DNA of 43,908 nucleotides, from the NCBI GenBank assembly GCA_903911205.1, contig CAIWCL010000178.1:1-43908 (forward strand). The letters run 5' to 3'. The notes below the pieces were generated by a model. That model ran no database searches. It was not told the DNA's origin and saw nothing but the letters and a program-made list of their open reading frames with translations. The DNA is from an uncultured bacterium. Its GTDB lineage: Bacteria > Planctomycetota > Phycisphaerae > Phycisphaerales > SM1A02. Shown here piece after piece: positions 1,281 to 43,908 of the stretch (positions are counted from its first letter, which is position 1; each line of letters begins with the position of its first letter). A program made the position numbers and the translations under genes.

Positions 1281-3668
1281 ATGCTGAATACACGCCGCCC
1301 CGCACACCGCGCCACCCCGCTCTCCTCCTTCCGCTTCGCCTCGATCATCTCGCTCGTCGCGACGACTGTGCTGAGTCTTTCGGCTCCCACCGAGGCCGCG
1401 CAGGAAGCCGATGACGCTGGCCACTTCGGGTTCGAAGGGCTTGAGGTCGTCAAAATCGACCCGAAGGCAGGCCCCATCGCCGCCGGCGACTTCGATGGTG
1501 ACGGCCGCGCCGATCTTGCGGCTGCGAACAACTTCAAGAGCCGGATCGAGCTTCACATCCAGAAGCCGGGCGCAACGCCTGACGATCCAATCGACGCGAC
1601 AACCTCGGTGAACGAGGTGCCTCCACACTGGCGATTCCGTCGCGTGGAGATTCCGGTCTCGCATCAAATCAACGCGATCGCGCCATTCGACTTCGATGGC
1701 GACGGCCTGCTCGACATCGTGTACGCGGGCCAACCAGGCACCGTCGTCTTCTTGCGCCAATCGAAGCCTGGCGTCTTTGAAGTGGAGCGCCGCATTCCGC
1801 TGAAAGGTCTGACGCAAAGTCGCGATGGCTTCGTCATTGCCGACCTCATCGGTGACGCGCGACCTGATCTCGCCGCAATCGTGTCCGGCCAACCCGTGGT
1901 GTGGCCGCTCGACGGCTCGAAACTCGGCGATCCGGTTGAACTCGGCTCGGGCGACCCCCTGGTCGCGCTTGTCGTCGGCGATTTCGACGGCGATAGCCAC
2001 AATGATCTCGTGGGTGTTACACCCGACAACGCAGCGCCCATCCGACTTTGGCTCGCAAGCAGCGAAACAGGTGCCGACGGCGCGGTGACGAAACGCCTTG
2101 GATCGCAACGTCGTTTCGAAATGCCACCGCTTCGCGAAGTGAGCGCGCTGCGACTTCCGGGCATGAAGAAGGATCTGCTCGCGCGAATCGAGCGGCAATC
2201 AAAGCGCCTCGTCGTCGAAGAACTCGTGGAAGACGCGTCCGGTGCGCGTGATGCGTCGCTGGAGGTTTTCTCCGCCGCGGGCGGCAAGAAGCGCTCGTAC
2301 GCCGTTGGTGATGTCGACGGCGATGGCCTTGCCGATATCATCGCGAGCGACCCAACGGCGAGCGCCGTGACCGTCTTCCGCCAACAAAAGGATCGCGGGC
2401 TTCAACCCGGCATTTCACAGCCGAGCTTTGCAGAAATCGATGCCGTCGCCGCGGGCAACGTCGATGGCAAGCCCGGCGACGAAGTCTTCGTTCTCTCGGA
2501 AAAAGAAGGCGTTGTCGGCAAGAGCGCTTGGACCAATGGCGCTCTTTCGTTCCCGACCGCCATGCCACTTTCTCCAGGCGTCACGCCCGCGGTGCTCTCG
2601 CTTGTGCAACTTGAGTCCGGACCACGCGCCGCCGTCATCACCAAAGACGGCCGCAACTACCAACTCGAACTTCTGCCCGTGAACGACGACACACAAGTCG
2701 CGGCAGAAGTCATCAAACTTGGCGCGCTTGTGAAAGGCCCTGATGCAATCCTCGCACTCGATGCCGATCAAGATGGGCGCACCGATCTCTTGCTTCTGAC
2801 GGCCGACAAGCCGATGTCCATGCTTCAAGCGGTTGAGAAAGACGGCAAAACCATGTTTGAACTGCGCGAGTCAAAGGACATGGCGCAGTTTGGTCTCGCG
2901 CAGGCAGCCAACGCTGGGAATTCCGTTGCGTTTGATGTCGACGGCGATGGCAAGAAGGAACTCGTCGTCGCCGATCGCAATTTCATTCGCGCGCTGCGCT
3001 ATGCGCCGGGCGCGAACCCTCCGGGTTGGCAAGTCGTTGCGCAGATGAACGCATCGCGCGCCGACGCGAAACTCGTTGCACTCACCGTGCGCGGCGACAC
3101 GCTCGTCGCTGCCGATCGTGAAAATGCGACGCTTGCGGTCTTCGCCAAGGATGCCGGCGGGAAGTGGACACAGTCTGACGAACACCCGGTGACAGGATTC
3201 AAGTTTGGCCCGGTGCGCGCGGGGAACTTCAGCGGTGGAACCTCGGAAGACGTGCTTCTCGTGGGTGACGACGGCTTCGCTGTTGCGCGTCTTGATGGCG
3301 GTCGCCTTGCGCTCGAAGAGGTGGCAAATTACCGCGCTGACCGCATCCAACAAGTCGATCACGAAGTGACTGCGGGCGACGTGAATGGCGACGGTTTCCT
3401 CGACGTGGTGACGCTCGACGCGGGCGAGCAGACGCTCGGGATTCTGAGTTTCAGCGCGTCGGGAAAGCTCGTTCCGATGACCCGATTCAAGGTCTTCGAA
3501 ACGCGACTCTTCCAAGCGGGTGAGCCTCGCGAGTTTGAGCCGAGTATGGCCCTGATCGATGACTTCACCGGCGATGGCGCGAAGGACGTTGTGCTCCTTT
3601 GCCACGATCGGATGCTGCTGTATCCGCAGTCGCCCAAGCCAACGAAGCCCACGCTGCCAACGAACTGA
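1281..3668 (+). CDS. Secreted VCBS/FG-GAP repeat beta-propeller-like protein
   Basis: Repeated D-x-D-G-D-G-xx-D motifs (DFDGDGRADL, DFDGDGLLDI, DVDGDGLADI, DVNGDGFLDV); signal peptide from Met at 1281. Confidence 0.85.
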   Translation: MLNTRRPAHRATPLSSFRFASIISLVATTVLSLSAPTEAAQEADDAGHFGFEGLEVVKIDPKAGPIAAGDFDGDGRADLAAANNFKSRIELHIQKPGATPDDPIDATTSVNEVPPHWRFRRVEIPVSHQINAIAPFDFDGDGLLDIVYAGQPGTVVFLRQSKPGVFEVERRIPLKGLTQSRDGFVIADLIGDARPDLAAIVSGQPVVWPLDGSKLGDPVELGSGDPLVALVVGDFDGDSHNDLVGVTPDNAAPIRLWLASSETGADGAVTKRLGSQRRFEMPPLREVSALRLPGMKKDLLARIERQSKRLVVEELVEDASGARDASLEVFSAAGGKKRSYAVGDVDGDGLADIIASDPTASAVTVFRQQKDRGLQPGISQPSFAEIDAVAAGNVDGKPGDEVFVLSEKEGVVGKSAWTNGALSFPTAMPLSPGVTPAVLSLVQLESGPRAAVITKDGRNYQLELLPVNDDTQVAAEVIKLGALVKGPDAILALDADQDGRTDLLLLTADKPMSMLQAVEKDGKTMFELRESKDMAQFGLAQAANAGNSVAFDVDGDGKKELVVADRNFIRALRYAPGANPPGWQVVAQMNASRADAKLVALTVRGDTLVAADRENATLAVFAKDAGGKWTQSDEHPVTGFKFGPVRAGNFSGGTSEDVLLVGDDGFAVARLDGGRLALEEVANYRADRIQQVDHEVTAGDVNGDGFLDVVTLDAGEQTLGILSFSASGKLVPMTRFKVFETRLFQAGEPREFEPSMALIDDFTGDGAKDVVLLCHDRMLLYPQSPKPTKPTLPTN

Positions 3669-25140: not shown

Positions 25141-25251
25141 GTCGAGGACTCCACACGGCTGAGGCAACGGGCGTGCCACCGGTCGAGAGTGCCGACGACC
25201 GAACCGCGGGGAGAGGCCCCGGATGGGGCCTCGGGTGGGGCCAACGGACGG

Positions 25252-25388
25252 GATCGAGGACTTGGATCGAGGACTTGGATCGAGGACTTGGATCGAGGAC
25301 TTGGATCGAGGACTTGGATCGAGGACTTGGATCGAGGACTTGGATCGAGGACTTGGATCGAGGACTTGGATCGAGGACTTGGATCGAG
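25252..25388. repeat. 13-bp perfect tandem repeat GATCGAGGACTTG, 10 full copies
   Basis: GATCGAGG at 25252, then every 13 bp to 25382. Confidence 0.98.
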
Positions 25389-25657
25389 GCCCGGGATTGA
25401 GACCCCGGATTGAGGCCCGGGGACGGACAATGCAGATCAAGCACTGAACTGGGGGCGGGCTCGCGTGCGGCGCCGAGGTTCGGGTTCAGGTTCAGGTTCA
25501 GGCTCAGGTCTCGAACTCGGACCCTCCACTCGTCCAAGCTCACGCTTCACCCTTCTGCGCCCGCCGCCCCCACGATTCTCAGCGTGAAATCACCTCGAAC
25601 TTCAACATGGATTCGACTTTGGCTTGCCCCAGGCAAACGCCGGGTGATAATCGGCCG

Positions 25658-27578: not shown

Positions 27579-27933
27579 AGCGAGGGACTCAAGAACAAAA
27601 TCGAGAGGGAACGGGCAGGAACAGGAGCCCAACAGGCAATTGACAGAGGCCGAAAGGAATCGGCACCTAGCAAAAGCACAGGAAGGCATGATGGCGGTAT
27701 GGGATGGACGAAAGGTGAGACAGGGAGAAACGGACACAGAGACACAGCCCGCGCATTTGCACCAAGGCAAAACGCACGGACAGCCCCTGAACCACTCCCA
27801 TGTGGACAGACGCAATCTAGCGCGAGATCCTGTCAAGGAAACTGGAATTTCCGCAGAACGCCAAAATTGCGGCCGCACTGCCCACAGACTCGAAGGTCGG
27901 AGTCGAACTTGAAGTCGAAGTCGAGGTTCGGGG

Positions 27934-28130
27934 TTCGAAGTCGGGGTTCGAAGTCGGGGTTCGAAGTCGAGGTTCGAAGTCGGGGTTCGAAGTCGGGGTT
28001 CGAAGTCGGGGTTCGAAGTCGGGGTTCGAAGTCGAGGTTCGAAGTCGAGGTTCGAAGTCGAGGTTCGAAGTCGAGGTTCGAAGTCGAGGTTCGAAGTCGA
28101 GGTTCGAAGGTCGAGGTTCGAAGGTCGAGG
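27934..28130. repeat. 13-bp tandem repeat TTCGAAGTCG(G/A)GG, 13 units plus two 14-bp units
   Basis: TTCG at 27934 then every 13 bp to 28103, then 28117. Confidence 0.97.
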
Positions 28131-36145: not shown

Positions 36146-37237
36146 GTGACGTCTATGCCGACTTCACGAGAATTCCTCGCTTCCCCCGCGTGCTCCGCTG
36201 CATCGCGCTCCTCCGCGACGGACACCCTCGCGACCTCCACCCCCGCGACCTACACCCTCGCGACCTCCACCCTCGCGACCTACGCACTCGTGAGCCTGCT
36301 CGCCGCGAGCGTCGGCTGTGCCGGATCGGGAAGTGGCTCGATGGGCGCGATGGCGCCGACCATCGCCTCCACGGCAGTTCCCGCACAGTCGGAGACCGCG
36401 ACCAACCGCAGCAACACCGAGCAATCCTCGCTCGTCGCAATGCTCGATGGGCAAGCCATCGAGTGGTCCGAACTGCGAACTCCGATCGCCGAACTTGCGG
36501 GACAGCAAGTGCTGCGCGACGCGGTGCTGGACATCCGGCTCATGCGACAACTTCGCGAACGAAGTCTCGTGATCGACGCCGATGCGATCACGCGCGAGGA
36601 GTCGCTCCTCCTCGAGACACTCTCTCCAAACCGTGAGCGCGCCGTTGAACTGCTCGGCGCGATTCGGCTGCGGCAAGGCCTCGGGCCCACACGCTTCGCC
36701 GCGCTCCTGCGACGAAATGCGGGGTTGCGCGCGCTCATCGCACGCGATGTGCGCGTCGATGAGACTGGCATCGCCAATGCATTTGACATGCTGCACGGCA
36801 CAAAGCGTGTCGCACGACTCGCGGTGCTGACGTCGCTCCCAGACGCAGAACGATTCATCAACGATGTGAAGGCAGGACGGCCATTTGTCGACCTCGCCGT
36901 CGAACGATCCCTCGACGAGGGTGCCGCACGCGGCGGACTCCTTGCCCCCATCGCGCGACGCGATCCGAGTTACCCCGAGGGCCTCCGCGCCGCGCTCTAT
37001 GCAACCGCGATCGGCGGAATATCCGCACCAGTCCTCGACAACGGCCGGTTCTTTGTGGTCACCGTACTTGAGGAGCGCCCGGGCGATGGAACCACGCTCG
37101 AGGCATCTCGTTCTCGCTGTGAAGAGGTCGTTCGACGGAGCCAAGAGAGGCTGCTGATGGATGCACTCGCGCGCGAACTCTCCGCACTCGAGGGCGTCAC
37201 GATCTTTGATCGCGGTTTTGACCCGCCAATCAAGTGA
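36146..37237 (+). CDS. Parvulin/SurA-like peptidylprolyl isomerase, predicted lipoprotein
   Basis: Lipobox LLAASVGC; VDLAVERSLDEGAARGGLLAPIARRD...GGISAPVLDNGRFFVVTVLEERPG. Confidence 0.7.
   Translation: MTSMPTSREFLASPACSAASRSSATDTLATSTPATYTLATSTLATYALVSLLAASVGCAGSGSGSMGAMAPTIASTAVPAQSETATNRSNTEQSSLVAMLDGQAIEWSELRTPIAELAGQQVLRDAVLDIRLMRQLRERSLVIDADAITREESLLLETLSPNRERAVELLGAIRLRQGLGPTRFAALLRRNAGLRALIARDVRVDETGIANAFDMLHGTKRVARLAVLTSLPDAERFINDVKAGRPFVDLAVERSLDEGAARGGLLAPIARRDPSYPEGLRAALYATAIGGISAPVLDNGRFFVVTVLEERPGDGTTLEASRSRCEEVVRRSQERLLMDALARELSALEGVTIFDRGFDPPIK
36221..36295. repeat. 15-bp tandem repeat in the signal-peptide region (pentapeptide [SY]TLAT)
   Basis: DTLAT STPAT YTLAT STLAT YALVS. 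Confidence 0.93.
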
Positions 37238-37274: not shown

Positions 37275-38402
37275 TCACGTCTTGAGTGCACCTACCCGCC
37301 AAGCCGCGATTGGCAGGAGAGCCGCCACCGGCAGAAAAACGCCGACGGCGGGTGGAATTCCCGGAAGCGCCACGGCCATCACAAGCAAACTTCCAAGGAG
37401 CCCCGGTACCGCGGTCGCTGCACAGAAGACGCTTGGCTTCAACATCTTCTGCGGCTCACGAACCAGGAAGAACGGGAGTGCGATGATGAGCATCATCAGA
37501 TTGACGAGCGCACCGGCGAAACGTTGACCGACGAGTCGCGTTGCGGCTTCCGGTTCGATGCCGCCTTCGCGAGCAAGCGCCCTGATTTGTGGTGTCGACA
37601 AGAGCTGCGCAAAGCCGCGGAATCGCCTTGCAAGGATGGCTTTCGGACTGACATCGGTCTCCACGAAATCGATGGCATCGCGGCGATCGATACGTACCTC
37701 TCGGCCGTCGCCAGAACCAGGCGCACTCCGACCAGCCGCCACGCCATCGACGAGATCCCATCCACCTCGCTCCGAGTTCCATGTCGCCTCGCGCGCTTCG
37801 ACACGCCGCGTCGCCGCACCTTTCTCGTCGCGTTCAAGCACGAGCAAGCCATACGCGCGCTCATCACGCGGATCGAACGCCTGCGCGAGTACGAGTTTCC
37901 CAGTGCCATCCTGGACAACGTTCACTGCGAATCGATCAGCCGAGGGCCGCAGGATTGCCGACTTCTCGCGCACGAGAAGTGGCGCAAGACGCGGCAGCAG
38001 GACTTCACCGTTGATGAGCTGCACCAGATTCAAGACAACAGCGACAACGAGCATCGCAAGTCCAACGCGCCAAAGGCTGATACCAGCTGCGAGCATCGCA
38101 ACGAGTTCGCGCGCCCGTACCATTTGCGCGAGCGTAAACCCTGCAGCAGCGACACAGGAAAGCCCGAGCAGGAACGCGTAGAACTGGAACACGCGTGGCA
38201 GATTGAAGTCGAGGATTGCAACGGGCATCGCGGTCCACATCGACGCGTAGTCCCCTGCGTCAACCGCGCGCTGGCACGCTTTGACGTACGCGTCGAGTTC
38301 GATGATGGTGTCGATCGAGATCGCGAAAAGCGTCATCACCACGAAGATCAGAACGAAGTTCGTGAAGAAGCGGAAGGCAATCCAACGGTCGAGGAGTGGC
38401 AT
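37275..38402 (-). CDS. lptG: LptF/LptG-family permease, probable LptG
   Basis: MPLLDRWIAFRFFTNFVLIFVVMTLFAISIDTI; ARELVAMLAAGISLWRVGLAML; ALVNLMMLIIALPFFLV. Confidence 0.8.
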   Translation of the reverse strand: MPLLDRWIAFRFFTNFVLIFVVMTLFAISIDTIIELDAYVKACQRAVDAGDYASMWTAMPVAILDFNLPRVFQFYAFLLGLSCVAAAGFTLAQMVRARELVAMLAAGISLWRVGLAMLVVAVVLNLVQLINGEVLLPRLAPLLVREKSAILRPSADRFAVNVVQDGTGKLVLAQAFDPRDERAYGLLVLERDEKGAATRRVEAREATWNSERGGWDLVDGVAAGRSAPGSGDGREVRIDRRDAIDFVETDVSPKAILARRFRGFAQLLSTPQIRALAREGGIEPEAATRLVGQRFAGALVNLMMLIIALPFFLVREPQKMLKPSVFCAATAVPGLLGSLLVMAVALPGIPPAVGVFLPVAALLPIAAWRVGALKT

Positions 38403-40072
38403 CAGTTCTTCGCAACCCTTCGAAGGCTGTCGGCGATCACGGCGAGAATCACGAGATTTCCGCTCGATGCAACAAACACGCCTGTGATGCTCGTGCCGTC
38501 CTTGAGCATCTGCTCACCACCGGAGATCAGCAAGATGTCGGCAATCGAGGGGATGAATGCGATCAAGTAAATCTGGAGCGGATTGCCGCCACGGAGGCGG
38601 ATCGCGAGTACCGCGCCCAAAAGGAGCATCAACGGCGCAGAAAGTGATTGATTGATGCGCTGCACGATGCGCGCAACGATGTCCGCGCGGACGCGATCGA
38701 TTTCGTGCTCGATACGTGCACCAGCGGCCCGCGCAGCGATCGCCGCCTGCGCCGCTGGTCCCTCTTGCAATTCTGGAGCTGCCTTCGCTTCCGTGACCAA
38801 CGCCTCAAGCGAAACGTCGGCCCGATCGGGCGCAGCGCAATTTTCAGCCGCAAGCCCGACAATGCGCGGTGGCCAACGACCGCTTCCAAGTCCGCGGAGA
38901 TCGGCGACGGTATCCGCACGTGCGAGAAGTTCAAAGCGCATCCCCGCGCCCTTGGGACGGGGCTCGGCGTTCAATGTCGCTTGCGTCACCGCGGCACGCT
39001 TCGTGACCACACCACGCTCGATCTCAACGAGTTCAATGTCGCCTTTGGTCCGCGGCACAAGCGTCGAACCCATCAACTGCGCGTTCTTCACCTCGTAGAT
39101 ACGGACACCGCCCGCGTCTGCGAACCGCGCGGTGCCCGTGTCTGACAACGCCTTCGTCACGCATGACCATGCGTCGACGGCGGTCAGCGAACCGACCGCA
39201 TCACGCCGCGCTTCTGCAACGCGGTGATACGCGCCCACATCGTTCCACACACCAAGCAGCCCCGCTGTATCGAGATCCTTTGGCTCAAGTTGAATGCCCT
39301 TGCCAAGATCGATCGCTTCGGGCTCCGCTTGCGGCACATAGACGAGCGCATCTTCACCGTCGCGGAACGCTGTCGCGTTTCGGAAGAGCAGTTTGAGAAA
39401 GGCGCTCTCATCAGTGCGATACACGTCGACCGTCGCAAATTCCGCAGTGAATTCTGTCTGGGTTCGCCCGTCTGGTCCGGTTTCAATCGCCGCAACGCCC
39501 GCGAGCGCAAGTCGCGTTGTCGGGCGCGTCGCTGCACTCGCGCCATTTTCCTCAATCTTCTCGCCAAGTTCCGTCCCAGGAATCACGAGCACTTCGTCCG
39601 CGTACAACTGCGTGTTCCCGACGCGAAATGCCTCGCCGCGCTCAACCGAACTCACAAAGAGTCGCGTGACATCGCGGGTGATCAGGCGGCGCATCGAAGT
39701 CCAAAAACGTGGAACTCCCGCGTCGACCAAGAGCGCCATGCCGAGAAAGAGCACGAGACCGAGCGCCGCCGCGGGCATCAGAATCCGTCGATACGAAAGA
39801 CCCGCCGCGGACATCGCGACGATTTCGTTGTCGGCCGCAAGTCGTGCGTACACGATCGTGCCTGCAAAGGCGCCGGCGAAAGGCAACGCGTACTGCAGCA
39901 TGGGTACCGACGCGAGCGTGACAAACTGCAGCACTTCCTCGGCGCCGAGGAGGTTCTGCATGATCGGTCGGATCGCCGCCCCGAATGCGATCACTGCGAC
40001 GAGAACACTCGCCGTCAGGATCTGGACACGGAGGAGTTCCGCGATGATGTGTCGGAGAAGGATGCGCGGCAT
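38402..40072 (-). CDS. lptF: LptF/LptG-family permease, probable LptF
   Basis: MPRILLRHIIAELLRVQIL; NEIVAMSAAGLSYRRILMPA; LMLLLGAVLAIRLRGGN. Confidence 0.78.
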   Translation of the reverse strand: MPRILLRHIIAELLRVQILTASVLVAVIAFGAAIRPIMQNLLGAEEVLQFVTLASVPMLQYALPFAGAFAGTIVYARLAADNEIVAMSAAGLSYRRILMPAAALGLVLFLGMALLVDAGVPRFWTSMRRLITRDVTRLFVSSVERGEAFRVGNTQLYADEVLVIPGTELGEKIEENGASAATRPTTRLALAGVAAIETGPDGRTQTEFTAEFATVDVYRTDESAFLKLLFRNATAFRDGEDALVYVPQAEPEAIDLGKGIQLEPKDLDTAGLLGVWNDVGAYHRVAEARRDAVGSLTAVDAWSCVTKALSDTGTARFADAGGVRIYEVKNAQLMGSTLVPRTKGDIELVEIERGVVTKRAAVTQATLNAEPRPKGAGMRFELLARADTVADLRGLGSGRWPPRIVGLAAENCAAPDRADVSLEALVTEAKAAPELQEGPAAQAAIAARAAGARIEHEIDRVRADIVARIVQRINQSLSAPLMLLLGAVLAIRLRGGNPLQIYLIAFIPSIADILLISGGEQMLKDGTSITGVFVASSGNLVILAVIADSLRRVAKN

Positions 40073-40210
40073 TCCGGGCTCGACATCCTCCCCCTTCTGG
40101 GCAGTTCTCGCAACCACCATGTTGGCTGCGGCAAACGCACAGGCCGCACAGGTGGAACGGCGCTTACCCCGAATTTCGACGGGCAATGCGGAAGACGCAC
40201 CTGACCTCAA

Positions 40211-40266
40211 CGAATTGCCGACGACGAATTGCCGACGACGAATTGCCGACGACGAATTTGCCGAAG
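40211..40266. repeat. 14-bp tandem repeat CGAATTGCCGACGA, four copies
   Basis: Starts at 40211, 40225, 40239, 40253; spacer between divergent lptF and pseudopilin operon. Confidence 0.95.
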
Positions 40267-40307: not shown

Positions 40308-40937
40308 ATGACGAATCTGAGCACCGATGCACCGGAGAAGCCCTGCGACGCTGCGCGCTGCGCGACCTGCGGCGATGTCCGTGACTTCGTCGAAACCAGT
40401 TGTGGTCAACGTCCTCGTCCGCGCCTTCGTGCGCGCATTCGTGCCCGCCTTCGTGCCCGCCTTTGTGGTCGCATTTGTGGTCGCATTCGTGGTCGCATTC
40501 ATGGTCGCATTCGTACGCCCCGCGGCATCACGCTCGTCGAGGTGCTCGTCGCCGCCGCGATCTTGTCGGTCGCCGCACTGGCTGCCCTCGAACTCCTTGC
40601 GACGAGCGACGCCGCTGCCCTTGCCGCACGCCGCGAGGCGATGGCTTCGGTCGAGGCAGAGCGCGCGCTTGCCGAGGCCGCCGAAGCCGTTCGTGACGGT
40701 CGCGAACCGTCCACACGGCGCGTCATCGATCATGATGCAGGGGGCGAAACACTCGCAGGCTGTGCGGTTGAGGTCCGGTCGATTCGCGAGCACCGCGCGA
40801 TCCACTCGTTTGGCGCGAATCCCACGCAAGTCCCGATTACTCGACTCACCGCGGAAGTGACCTCACCCGACGGTGAAACTCTCGCGATGCTCGAGCGCGT
40901 GGCCCCACGCGACATCCGAACGGGAGACTCCCCGTGA
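40308..40937 (+). CDS. Type II secretion/type IV pilus-like pseudopilin (GspI-like) with very long leader
   Basis: Prepilin motif TPRG|ITLVEVLVAAAILSVAALAALELL; start from nearest in-frame ATG. Confidence 0.72.
   Translation: MTNLSTDAPEKPCDAARCATCGDVRDFVETSCGQRPRPRLRARIRARLRARLCGRICGRIRGRIHGRIRTPRGITLVEVLVAAAILSVAALAALELLATSDAAALAARREAMASVEAERALAEAAEAVRDGREPSTRRVIDHDAGGETLAGCAVEVRSIREHRAIHSFGANPTQVPITRLTAEVTSPDGETLAMLERVAPRDIRTGDSP
40413..40519. repeat. 12-bp tandem repeat, about 9 units, in the prepilin leader
   Basis: RLRARIRARLRARLCGRICGRIRGRIHGRIRT. Confidence 0.93.
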
Positions 40938-41575
40938 CTCGTCGCCGTGGCTTCACACCCTTCCGTGGCTTCACACCCTTCCGTGGCTTCACACTCATCG
41001 AAGTCACCATCGCCGCTGGCCTTCTCGCCATCGTCGGACTCGCGGTTGTTGCCTTTTTGTCCGCATTTGCTCGAGGAGCGCAGACACGAGCGCGCGTTTC
41101 CGATCCAGCCATCGAAGGCGCACTGCTCGTCGAGCGTCTCCGCGCGCTTCATCCTTCGATGCGCGCCACGCTTGGAAGCGACGAACATCTGGCCGCACTT
41201 TGGCTTTCCGATCGCGTGCCGAGCCGCACCGTACATCTCAGCGAACTTGGCTGGCTGCGATTCGATGCAACGTCGGGCGATGTCTTGCTTGATCGCATCG
41301 AAACAGAACGCTTCCTCGATGATCGCACGCTGGAGAGTGAATTGTCGTCGAGTGACGACTTTCTCGCGCTCCATGACGAGGTCGTCCGTGAAGGCCTTCT
41401 CGCCACCACGATTCTCGCGGAAGGCCTCGATGATGTGCGCTTCGTACCACCGCCGCGCGAGTCACGTGGTGAAACAAGCCACTCGCTCAGAAATCTCACG
41501 ATCGAACTCGAGGCCGAGCGCGCCGTTGCGCGACTCGTCGTTTCTCCGACGAATCCCGAGGAGCCCATGCGATGA
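40934..41575 (+). CDS. Prepilin-type N-terminal cleavage protein (GspJ-like)
   Basis: RGFTPFRGFTPFRG|FTLIEVTIAAGLLAIVGLAVVAFL; GTG overlaps previous TGA. Confidence 0.78.
   Translation: MTRRRGFTPFRGFTPFRGFTLIEVTIAAGLLAIVGLAVVAFLSAFARGAQTRARVSDPAIEGALLVERLRALHPSMRATLGSDEHLAALWLSDRVPSRTVHLSELGWLRFDATSGDVLLDRIETERFLDDRTLESELSSSDDFLALHDEVVREGLLATTILAEGLDDVRFVPPPRESRGETSHSLRNLTIELEAERAVARLVVSPTNPEEPMR
40946..40999. repeat. 18-bp tandem repeat CGTGGCTTCACACCCTTC across the prepilin cleavage motif
   Basis: Units at 40946, 40964, 40982; peptide RGFTPF RGFTPF RGFTLI. Confidence 0.97.
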
Positions 41576-43335
41576 GTGCGTCGAACACCGTCAAACCGAC
41601 GCACGTGCGATCGTGCTACTTGCGCACAGACCCGCGAGCAGCGCGTGGTTCGGCGGTGCTCATGGCGCTCGTCGCCGTGGGCGTTGCAACGTTGCTTGGG
41701 CTCTCGCTCGCTGCAACACGCGATGCGAATGTCGCCGCGAGCCACAATCTCGCGCATGCGGCGTCCGCCCGAGCCGCAGCCGCGGGCGCGATGGACGTCG
41801 CGATGTCACTCCTCGCTGATGCGGAAAGCAGCGATCCAATCGCACTCGCCGAAGCAGACGGCGTTCTCTTTGAGCAGCTCGCGATTGGCGCGGCAACCGC
41901 CAAGGCCCGCGTCGTTGACCTCTCCACTGGCCTCGCCGCGGGGCCTGATTCCGACGCGGTCGAACTCGTCGTCGAGGGTGTCTCCGGCGGCATTTCGCAG
42001 ATCGCTCGTGCCGTTGGGCGCATGCCGCGACCAAACGCCGCGCCCGAAGCGGATCTCGATTGCTCTGAGTTTGCGTTGCTCGCCATCGGTCGCCTGTCCA
42101 TCGAGGGTGATGCGCTGCTCGCACTTTGGCCGAATGCGCCGCTCTCGGTGCTCGCCGAGCCTGTCGCCTATGGCGTCGCCGATGGATCACGCGGACGAAT
42201 CGCTTGTTCGCCCAATGCGAGCCTGCACGGCACGGTCGCGCTCCGCGTCGGCAGTTTCGCCGCGGACGACGAAACACGCGATGAACACCTCGCGGAGAAG
42301 ACACTCTTCATCCCCGAGGCAATTCACGTACCGATGACTGCCCTGCCGCGAGAGCGCACATTCGAAACAGATGCAGAGGGCGACGCGCGCGCAGGCGCCA
42401 CACTTGATGGCTACGTTGCGTTTGACATGTCGCCCCAAGGAGACATGCGAGTTCCGGCACGCGCAGCGGCAACGTTGCGTGGCGTGCGCGAGTTCGATGT
42501 GGGCGGAGATCTTCGCATCGAGCGTGGTGCAAGCGTTCGCGTTGAAGGCGAGACTGCGTTCGTCGTGCGCGGTGATCTGATCATCGAACCTTCGAATGTC
42601 GAGGTTGCGGCCGGCGCAACGCTCTCGATTCTCGTCCTTGGCAATGTCACGATTGAGAGCGCATACCTCGGCGGCGAGCGCTCAAACCCTGAAGAATTGC
42701 GCGACGGAACTGGGCGCGCGGCGTATGACGGAGGCGCGTCCCGCGTCTCGATCCTCGTCGAAGGCAATGGAGACGTTGCCATCAGTGAAGGCAGTGTCGT
42801 CAAGGGAGAGATCTACGCACCGCGCGCGGATGTCGCGCTCGCGTCGCGCAGCGCGATCTACGGCCGCGTGCTCGGTGCGGATGTCGAACTGCGGACAGGA
42901 ACCGCCATCTTCTACGACCCAGCGCTCGATAGTCGTCGGGGCTGGAGTGCTCGTTCGAGTGGAATCTGGACGGATGCTGGAACGGCGCAACCCGCGATAC
43001 GCGAAGTCGAACGGCTCTCACTCGACGATCTCACCCGTTTCGCCGCGGCGACGGGCGTGTCCCCTGCTGTTTCACCGACGTTCGTCCCGGTATCGATGGA
43101 CTCACACGTCGTGGACGCGGAGGCGGTCGAGGCGCGAAACGGGTCGGGAACGAATGCACGAGAGGGCCGCGTGCGCTCCTTCGCCCGCGGAATTGTGCGT
43201 GCGATTCAGACGCAAATTCAGAACAGCCGCGGGGTGTGGTCACGCGACTCTGAATCGCGCGAGATGCAGCGCGAAGAATTTGAAAACGCATTCACATCAC
43301 TCGGTTTCGACGTTCCGCGAGGGATCGACGAATGA
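41572..43335 (+). CDS. PilX/GspK-like pilus assembly protein with beta-helical (polymer-forming-like) C-terminal region
   Basis: N-terminal RGSAVLMALVAVGVATLLGLSLAATRDANVAASHN; repetitive GDLRIERGASVRVEGETAFVVRGDLIIEPSNVEV; ATGA overlap upstream. Confidence 0.6.
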   Translation: MSASNTVKPTHVRSCYLRTDPRAARGSAVLMALVAVGVATLLGLSLAATRDANVAASHNLAHAASARAAAAGAMDVAMSLLADAESSDPIALAEADGVLFEQLAIGAATAKARVVDLSTGLAAGPDSDAVELVVEGVSGGISQIARAVGRMPRPNAAPEADLDCSEFALLAIGRLSIEGDALLALWPNAPLSVLAEPVAYGVADGSRGRIACSPNASLHGTVALRVGSFAADDETRDEHLAEKTLFIPEAIHVPMTALPRERTFETDAEGDARAGATLDGYVAFDMSPQGDMRVPARAAATLRGVREFDVGGDLRIERGASVRVEGETAFVVRGDLIIEPSNVEVAAGATLSILVLGNVTIESAYLGGERSNPEELRDGTGRAAYDGGASRVSILVEGNGDVAISEGSVVKGEIYAPRADVALASRSAIYGRVLGADVELRTGTAIFYDPALDSRRGWSARSSGIWTDAGTAQPAIREVERLSLDDLTRFAAATGVSPAVSPTFVPVSMDSHVVDAEAVEARNGSGTNAREGRVRSFARGIVRAIQTQIQNSRGVWSRDSESREMQREEFENAFTSLGFDVPRGIDE

Positions 43336-43400
43336 GAAAGCACGCGAGATGCGTTCTTCTTGAGAATGCGGTAGCAGACCTTGAGCATGGAGGAGGACGG

Positions 43401-43908
43401 ATGAAGTTTGGAACCCAGTCCCAACCACACACGCGCGGCTTTACCTTTGTGGAAGTGCTCGTCGTCGTGGGCATCCTCGGACTTTTCGCATCACTCGTGA
43501 TTCCACGACTCGCGAGCGCGAAACTTCCCGTTGCCACGCCCGTCGAAAACACGCTCGAAGCGGATTTGCGCCTCGCCCGTACTGAGGCGATTGCGCGCGC
43601 TCGGACGATTGCGTTTGTCATCGCGGAAGACGGCGCAGCTTGGTGGATTGCCGAAGCGACCAATCCAACGGAACCGATCGAGCGGACGCGACGCGAATTC
43701 GGCCGTGGTGCGCTGACTGAACTGGACGGCGTGACGATCGCTGTCGAGAGCAGCGACCATGGAAGTGTCTCCAAGCTTCAAAGCGTGCATGTCATCGCAA
43801 CGTTTGATGCGCTCGGCACGCGCGACACGGGCGTGGTGGAACTTCTCGCACGCGACGCGCGCGGCTCACACATCGCGCGATGGACGCTGCCCGCGGGCCG
43901 AACCCGCC
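43401..43908 (+). CDS. GspH/FimT-like pseudopilin, truncated by window end (in-frame ATG also at 43332)
   Basis: My translation: MKFGTQSQPHTRG|FTFVEVLVVVGILGLFASLVIPRLASAKLP...; GGAGGAGG upstream; open to the end. Confidence 0.8.
   Translation, partial: MKFGTQSQPHTRGFTFVEVLVVVGILGLFASLVIPRLASAKLPVATPVENTLEADLRLARTEAIARARTIAFVIAEDGAAWWIAEATNPTEPIERTRREFGRGALTELDGVTIAVESSDHGSVSKLQSVHVIATFDALGTRDTGVVELLARDARGSHIARWTLPAGRTR

What the first reader, a model, noticed from the sequence alone, without database searches (positions are those of the whole stretch)
40308..40999. Tandem repeats expanding the leaders of two adjacent pseudopilins, one copying the cleavage motif
The GspI-like leader is about 73 residues from the nearest in-frame ATG, against the usual 5-30. 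Nine 12-bp units encode basic [L/I]-x-[A/G]-R tetrapeptides running up to the G|ITLVEV site. Its upstream part also has four cysteines (CDAARCATCGDVRDFVETSC). In the next gene three 18-bp units give RGFTPF-RGFTPF-RG|FTLIEV, so two decoy G-F-T sites precede the real one. Both arrays stay in frame and sit N-terminal to the cleavage Gly. Copy number could tune secretion, cleavage or phase variation.
Basis: partly seen in the sequence, partly recalled or inferred. Interest (0 to 1): 0.72.

Follow-up and report, generated by a model that had tools for sequence, protein, structure and literature searches.

The report
Tandem-repeat leaders of two adjacent pseudopilins
Two neighbouring pilin-like genes carry short in-frame DNA repeats in the disposable front end of their proteins; sister species lack them and the genome is full of such repeats, so here they are most likely harmless young duplications, but following them up exposed an apparently undescribed, conserved family of leader repeats in an unrelated group, the sphingomonads.

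Summary
A 12-bp array (about 8 units) lies inside the 73-residue leader of one N_methyl protein, and three 18-bp RGFT copies precede the next one's cleavage site. Both are in frame. A third, 14-bp array lies 44 bp upstream of the first ATG.

The proposed function is not supported. Where alignable, sister species lack all three arrays but keep the same start codon (39-residue leader) and the ancestral MTRRRG|FTLLEV form of gene 2. Leader codons there evolve without codon-position bias (substitutions 10/14/11) while the mature part is constrained (17/3/74). The genome holds about 31 tandem arrays per 100 kb against about 2.5 simulated; those inside genes are frame-preserving (32/34) and those between genes are not (20/46). 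Units of 12 and 18 bp cannot switch genes on and off. Best reading: recent slippage duplications tolerated in a permissive, cleaved-off segment.

A cross-genome scan showed that repeats copying the cleavage motif recur, most strikingly in Sphingomonadaceae: a 33-bp unit (RSAEHGFTxxx) sits 1-7 times before the cleavage site of several type II pseudopilins of one operon, with skewed codons, a conserved hairpin core with a compensatory E-H to Q-Q change, and (seven genomes) no copies outside the locus. I found no description of it.

The parts
38402..40072 (-). Divergent LptF/LptG permease gene (likely start at 40072); context only
   Evidence: PF03739 2.7e-20; start region conserved in G002/G011
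40210..40264 (.). 14-bp array ACGAATTGCCGACG x3.9, non-coding, 44 bp upstream of the ORF1 ATG; absent in sister species
40308..40937 (+). ORF1, N_methyl (minor pseudopilin-like) protein with 73-aa leader
   Evidence: PF07963 27.3 bits; ATG conserved in G002 and G011
40308..40526 (+). ORF1 leader up to and including the cleavage Gly codon (40524-40526)
40422..40514 (+). 12-bp array CGCATTCGTGGT x7.8 in the leader, encoding [R/C/H]-[A/G]-R-[L/I]
   Evidence: absent from the orthologous leaders; flank gaps
40934..41575 (+). ORF2, N_methyl (minor pseudopilin-like) protein, GTG start
   Evidence: PF07963 22.4 bits; sister species start with ATG
40945..40994 (+). 18-bp array CCGTGGCTTCACACCCTT x2.8: two RGFTPF copies, then the real RG|FTLIEV (Gly codon 40985-40987)
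   Evidence: sister species have a single site
41572..43335 (+). Downstream PilX/GspK-like protein with DUF7305; context
   Evidence: PF23981 9.8e-12; PilX-like character is inference
43332..43908 (+). Fourth operon gene, N_methyl + GspH pseudopilin, no array in its leader; runs off the window
   Evidence: PF12019 1.8e-5

Best explanation
The two leader arrays are young, species-private minisatellites made by local slippage or tandem duplication in a genome that makes them everywhere. They survive because (1) their units are multiples of 3, (2) they lie in a cytoplasmic leader that is cut off and whose sequence is barely constrained, and (3) in gene 2 the duplicated unit begins with the same word (CGTGGCTTCACAC) as the true cleavage junction, so gaining or losing a copy always regenerates an intact RG|FTLIEV site. 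Shown here: presence, frame, absence in relatives, genome-wide excess, lack of leader constraint. Inferred: slippage as the mechanism, normal cleavage at the last Gly only, and near-neutral effect.
For: Sister species G002 and G011 lack all three arrays; flank-to-flank gaps are 17/-9/14 bp (G002) and 17/-9/32 bp (G011; ORF2 flanks there only 72-74% identical) against arrays of 55/93/50 bp. They share the same ORF1 ATG with a 39-aa leader and MNRRRG/MTRRRG|FTLLEV in gene 2. Genome density of arrays (score >=50) is 36 per 100 kb in the window and 30 elsewhere, against 0 and 7 arrays in total in simulated sequence; congeners 10-26 per 100 kb; E. coli 1 in 50 kb. Coding arrays are frame-preserving in 32/34, non-coding in 20/46 (Fisher 1.3e-6); density 13.9 vs 118 per 100 kb. 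Leader substitutions between G002 and G011 by codon position: 10/14/11; mature part: 17/3/74. Leader arrays (TRF score >=40) occur in 2/31, 2/27 and 1/25 leaders, while arrays (score >=50) sit in the first 150 nt of 7 of 204 and 4 of 103 predicted genes.
Against: Two arrays in two adjacent genes plus one just upstream is a local cluster. N-termini generally hold about twice the arrays expected from coding sequence (7 vs 4.2 here; 20 vs about 10 over the six genomes), so some positional bias exists. Similar cleavage-motif copies recur in other lineages, including another pilin of sister species G002. No within-species data exist to show neutrality. The absence of codon bias in the leader would also fit an untranslated leader with a non-canonical start.
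Confidence: 0.78

Rival explanations
1. The arrays tune pseudopilin dosage or processing: longer basic leaders or decoy G-F-T sites change targeting, peptidase access or filament assembly, with copy number as a rheostat.
For: Both arrays keep a basic leader, end at the true site, and occur in two genes of one operon. Cleavage-motif leader repeats recur in other genomes.
Against: Absent from congeners; leader sequence unconstrained in sisters; decoys lack Glu5 and a hydrophobic segment and would lie away from the membrane-embedded active site (PMC10191384).
Confidence: 0.1
2. The 12-bp array is not translated: ORF1 starts at a non-canonical codon (e.g. ATT) near the Gly, and the arrays are non-coding 5'-leader DNA, like the 14-bp array.
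For: No codon-position bias in the sister leaders; most congeners have starts 5-45 codons from the Gly.
Against: The ATG and about 16 following codons are conserved in position in G002 and G011; no ATG/GTG/TTG occurs closer to the Gly in the window species or G002, and in G011 only the codon right after the ATG; the frame is open in all three.
Confidence: 0.1
3. Assembly artefact of a metagenome-assembled contig.
For: The genome is a 393-contig assembly.
Against: The arrays (55, 93, 50 bp) are shorter than an ordinary short read; similar arrays are seen in independent congener assemblies; the 12-bp units differ from one another and the frame is kept.
Confidence: 0.02

Closest known systems
Class III signal peptide / type IV (pseudo)pilin N-terminus (PF07963 N_methyl)
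   Same: Basic hydrophilic leader ending in Gly, then F/I-T-L-x-E and a hydrophobic helix
   Different: Leader of 73 aa with a 12-bp array, or with two extra copies of the RGFT junction; published leaders are 6-26 aa (PMC4471445), although 'very long' ones are known (PMC10191384)
Bacterial minisatellites / VNTRs ('Satellites in the prokaryote world', PMC6749651)
   Same: Short head-to-tail units, near-identical copies, presence/absence between species, multiples of 3 in genes
   Different: This genome is far richer than most surveyed there (most species under 4 satellites per Mb, though detection criteria differ); here the array sits on a processing site
Sphingomonadaceae gsp leader repeats (found here; no description found in the library)
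   Same: In-frame tandem copies of a unit carrying G-F-T directly before the true G|FTLIE site
   Different: 33-bp unit shared among several genes of one operon and across species, conserved as nucleic acid (hairpin core). The window's units are private, differ between its two genes and show no such conservation
Contingency (phase-variable) repeat loci, e.g. Haemophilus tetranucleotide repeats (PMC2651432)
   Same: Repeats near the start of surface-related genes
   Different: Units there shift the frame; 12- and 18-bp units cannot

Membership tests
Class III signal peptide (type IV pilin-like) | Small residue (Gly/Ala) at -1, aromatic/aliphatic +1, Glu +5, hydrophobic stretch of about 20 residues | tested here: met
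   G|ITLVEVLVAAAIL and G|FTLIEVTIAAGLL; PF07963 above cut-off for both
Class III signal peptide (type IV pilin-like) | A prepilin peptidase in the same genome | tested here: met
   PF01478 at G000:C174:2168-2386, 28 bits, over cut-off; T2SSF and secretin also present
GspI minor pseudopilin | Match to a GspI/T2SSI family model | tested here: not met
   Pfam scan gives N_methyl only above cut-off for ORF1; NCBIfam was not run successfully (one search failed on coordinates)
Phase-variable contingency locus | Repeat unit not a multiple of 3 within or at the start of the reading frame, so that copy changes switch the frame | tested here: not met
   12- and 18-bp units; only the 14-bp array is out of frame and it is upstream of the ATG
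Minisatellite / VNTR | Tandem near-identical units above chance | tested here: met
   TRF scores 100-102; 0 arrays in simulated window sequence
Minisatellite / VNTR | Copy-number polymorphism within a species | not testable with these tools
   One genome per species held; between species there is presence/absence
Decoy cleavage sites | Copied motif is a substrate: Gly followed by a hydrophobic segment with Glu5 | tested here: not met
   After Gly6 and Gly12: FTPFR, with Arg at +5 and no hydrophobic stretch

The most novel reading that the evidence does not exclude
Leader repeats that re-copy the prepilin-peptidase junction are a recurrent class of elements. Because one end of the unit is the conserved junction word, they can expand and spread between pseudopilin genes without damage, and in sphingomonads they have become a conserved nucleic-acid hairpin element (GCCG-AACA-CGGC) that may regulate type II pseudopilin expression. 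The window's gene 2 would be a newborn example.
Probability: 0.2. Interest if true: 0.7.

Novelty: new variant of a known kind. Interest (0 to 1): 0.42.

Why it matters
For the window itself, it is a clean example of how processing sites tolerate tandem duplication, in a genome unusually rich in minisatellites. More widely, the follow-up shows that cleavage-motif-copying leader repeats exist as a conserved, operon-confined family in Sphingomonadaceae. That makes a testable question: do pseudopilin leaders carry RNA or DNA elements, or can repeats spread simply because they regenerate the cleavage site?

Tried and rejected
Pfam and NCBIfam failed through an off-by-one frame; only Pfam was repeated. 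The gene caller is home-made; it extended LptF over the 14-bp array, so that array was counted as one of the two out-of-frame coding cases. The alternative +1 frame (40327-40860; hydrophobic V-x-A-F repeats) was considered as a hidden ORF and rejected as the shadow of the array. The cross-genome scan was biased to one codon choice (GGCTTCAC). Outside the 42 period-33 hits, in-frame spacing was 13 of 30, not clearly above the third expected by chance, so single cases there are leads, not statistics. Outer-stem covariation of the sphingomonad hairpin was largely not above shuffles; only the inner 4-bp core is claimed. Literature searches found no description of leader repeats in pseudopilins.

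Full report
What is there. The window is contig C178 of a 3.87-Mb, 393-contig assembly. At 40308-43908 lies an operon of pilin-like genes: ORF1 (40308-40937) and ORF2 (40934-41575), both N_methyl only by Pfam; ORF3 (41572-43335) with DUF7305; ORF4 (43332-) with N_methyl and GspH. It is divergent from two LptF/LptG permeases. The genome has a prepilin peptidase, several T2SSF proteins and secretins, so a type II / type IV filament machinery is present. The ORF1 leader is 73 residues and holds a 12-bp array (40422-40514, 7.8 copies). The ORF2 leader is 18 residues with an 18-bp array (40945-40994, 2.8 copies, 100% identical) that repeats RGFT twice before the true RG|FTLIEV. A third array, 14 bp x3.9 at 40210-40264, lies in non-coding DNA just upstream.

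Relatives. Fifteen congeners hold an ORF1 orthologue. No array was found in the ORF1 or ORF2 leader of any of them (for G010 no ORF2 leader was seen). The closest two, G002 and G011 (79% and 77% identical proteins), keep the same ATG in conserved DNA, with a 39-residue leader, and a single MNRRRG|FTLLEV or MTRRRG|FTLLEV in gene 2. Flank-to-flank measurement at the three array positions gives gaps of 17, -9 and 14 bp in G002 and 17, -9 and 32 bp in G011, where the window has 55, 93 and 50 bp; the G011 flanks at ORF2 are only 72-74% identical. The arrays are thus most simply private to the window's species. A long leader (39 aa) is older; the array adds about 34 aa to it. Between G002 and G011 the leader shows substitutions at codon positions 10/14/11, the mature part 17/3/74. 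The leader is close to unconstrained while the exported protein is under strong purifying selection.

Genome background. In 284 kb of this genome there are 89 arrays of TRF score >=50 (16 in the window, 73 elsewhere) against 7 in simulated sequence. Congeners have 10-26 per 100 kb, a member of another family of the same order 15, and E. coli K-12 one in 50 kb. Arrays are 8.5 times denser between genes than in genes. In genes 32 of 34 have a period divisible by three, between genes 20 of 46 (Fisher 1.3e-6; pooled over five genomes of the genus 67/69 vs 33/78, 5e-14). This is what one expects if arrays arise everywhere and frame-breaking ones are removed from genes. N-termini carry about twice the share expected from coding length (7 vs 4.2 here). 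Arrays (score >=40) overlap 2 of 31 pilin-type leaders in this genome, 2 of 27 in G002 and 1 of 25 in others. With 7 of 204 and 4 of 103 predicted genes carrying an array (score >=50) in their first 150 nt, leaders are not clearly special. The satellite survey in PMC6749651 reports fewer than 4 satellites per Mb for most prokaryotes, so this genus is satellite-rich, with the reservation that criteria differ.

How it works. The leader of a class III signal peptide stays in the cytoplasm and is removed by a peptidase whose active site lies at the membrane (PMC10191384); leaders may be shortened in some systems and the last Gly is critical (PMC4471445). The two upstream RGFTPF copies lack Glu5 and any hydrophobic segment, so I infer that they are not cleaved. 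In ORF2 the repeat unit starts with the same DNA word as the true junction, so slippage changes copy number in whole codons and always leaves one intact junction. In ORF1 the array keeps the leader basic. Differences among its 12-bp units are mostly amino-acid changing (L/I, R/C/H, A/G), with only the CGC Arg codon constant, which does not point to selection on the peptide. Near-neutral slippage duplicates in a permissive segment is the best-supported account (0.78). On/off phase variation is excluded for the 12- and 18-bp arrays by their unit length. The 14-bp array could affect initiation, but nothing here tests that.

Recurrence elsewhere. A scan of 84,980 species genomes for a GGCTTCAC word 18-48 bp upstream of GGCTTCAC-x-L-I-E gave 72 loci; 42 matches share a period of exactly 33 bp, in frame, nearly all in records named Sphingobium, Sphingomonas or relatives. 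There the unit [R-S-A-E-H-G-F-T-x-x-x] stands 1-7 times before the true site of several pseudopilins (GspG-, H-, I-, J-like) of the same operon. In seven genomes the 22-bp core occurs nowhere outside that locus and only on one strand. In a sample of 201 family genomes about 17 have at least two clustered copies (counted by me). Over 281 units in 119 arrays the codons are far from background (CGT in 217 of 281 units, about 82% of Arg codons there, vs 13% in the background; TCC about 94% of Ser vs 19%; GCC about 98% of Ala vs 34%). The core is 0.89 identical between genomes while the 15-bp spacer is 0.47 (124 units). The core folds as GCCG-AACA-CGGC, and the variant RSAQQG changes both partners of one pair (G-C to C-G; Fisher 3e-10 using one unit per array; 91.6% of cells paired and covariation score 0.130 against 0.091 shuffled). 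Caveats: arrays are related by copying, so counts overstate independence, and the QQ variant may descend from few events. Single examples of copied junctions also appear in Armatimonadetes (L142, L151: three genes), Myxococcales (L127), Planctomycetota (L164), Phycisphaerae (L159), and in a different pilin of sister species G002 (RSFTSRGFTSRGFTIRG|FTIIEL, L199; the window genome's counterpart lacks it). The library searches found no account of this.

Verdict. Interest is moderate, mostly because of that lineage.

Noticed in passing
L119-L188 (Sphingomonadales loci) and L219-L238, e.g. L228 (leader site at 2702), L233 reverse strand (site at 3601), L165:4163-5793: 33-bp in-frame leader repeats (RSAEHGFTxxx) before the cleavage site of gspG/H/I/J-like genes, conserved as DNA with a compensatory hairpin core; not found in the literature library.
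   Followed up: partly
L219 (G248:C53:1-4000) and L220 (G248:C84:27000-31889): Two contig ends of one Sphingomonas assembly hold the same operon region with 7 or more (contig starts inside the array) versus 4 copies of the first array: copy-number heterogeneity or an assembly effect.
   Followed up: no
L199 (G002:C61:7200-12100), reverse strand, cleavage site at locus position 2360: A different pilin of sister species G002 has a 15-bp leader array RSFTSRGFTSRGFTIRG|FTIIEL; the window genome's counterpart (L044) has none.
   Followed up: partly
window 25251-25418 and 27911-28130: Two long 13-bp arrays (10.7 copies at 100% and 16.8 copies at 94%) between predicted genes; among the largest in the window.
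   Followed up: no
window 36213-36290: 15/30-bp array at the N-terminus of a weakly PPIC-type rotamase-like protein (TLATSTPATYTLATST...), absent from the orthologous place in G002 (gap 8 bp against 78 bp).
   Followed up: partly
L142 (1843-1878 and 194-229) and L151 (5023-5058), Armatimonadetes fen_943: Three pilin-like genes of one assembly carry an 18-bp-spaced copied junction (e.g. RRGFTVKQG|FTLIELLVVIAIIA).
   Followed up: no
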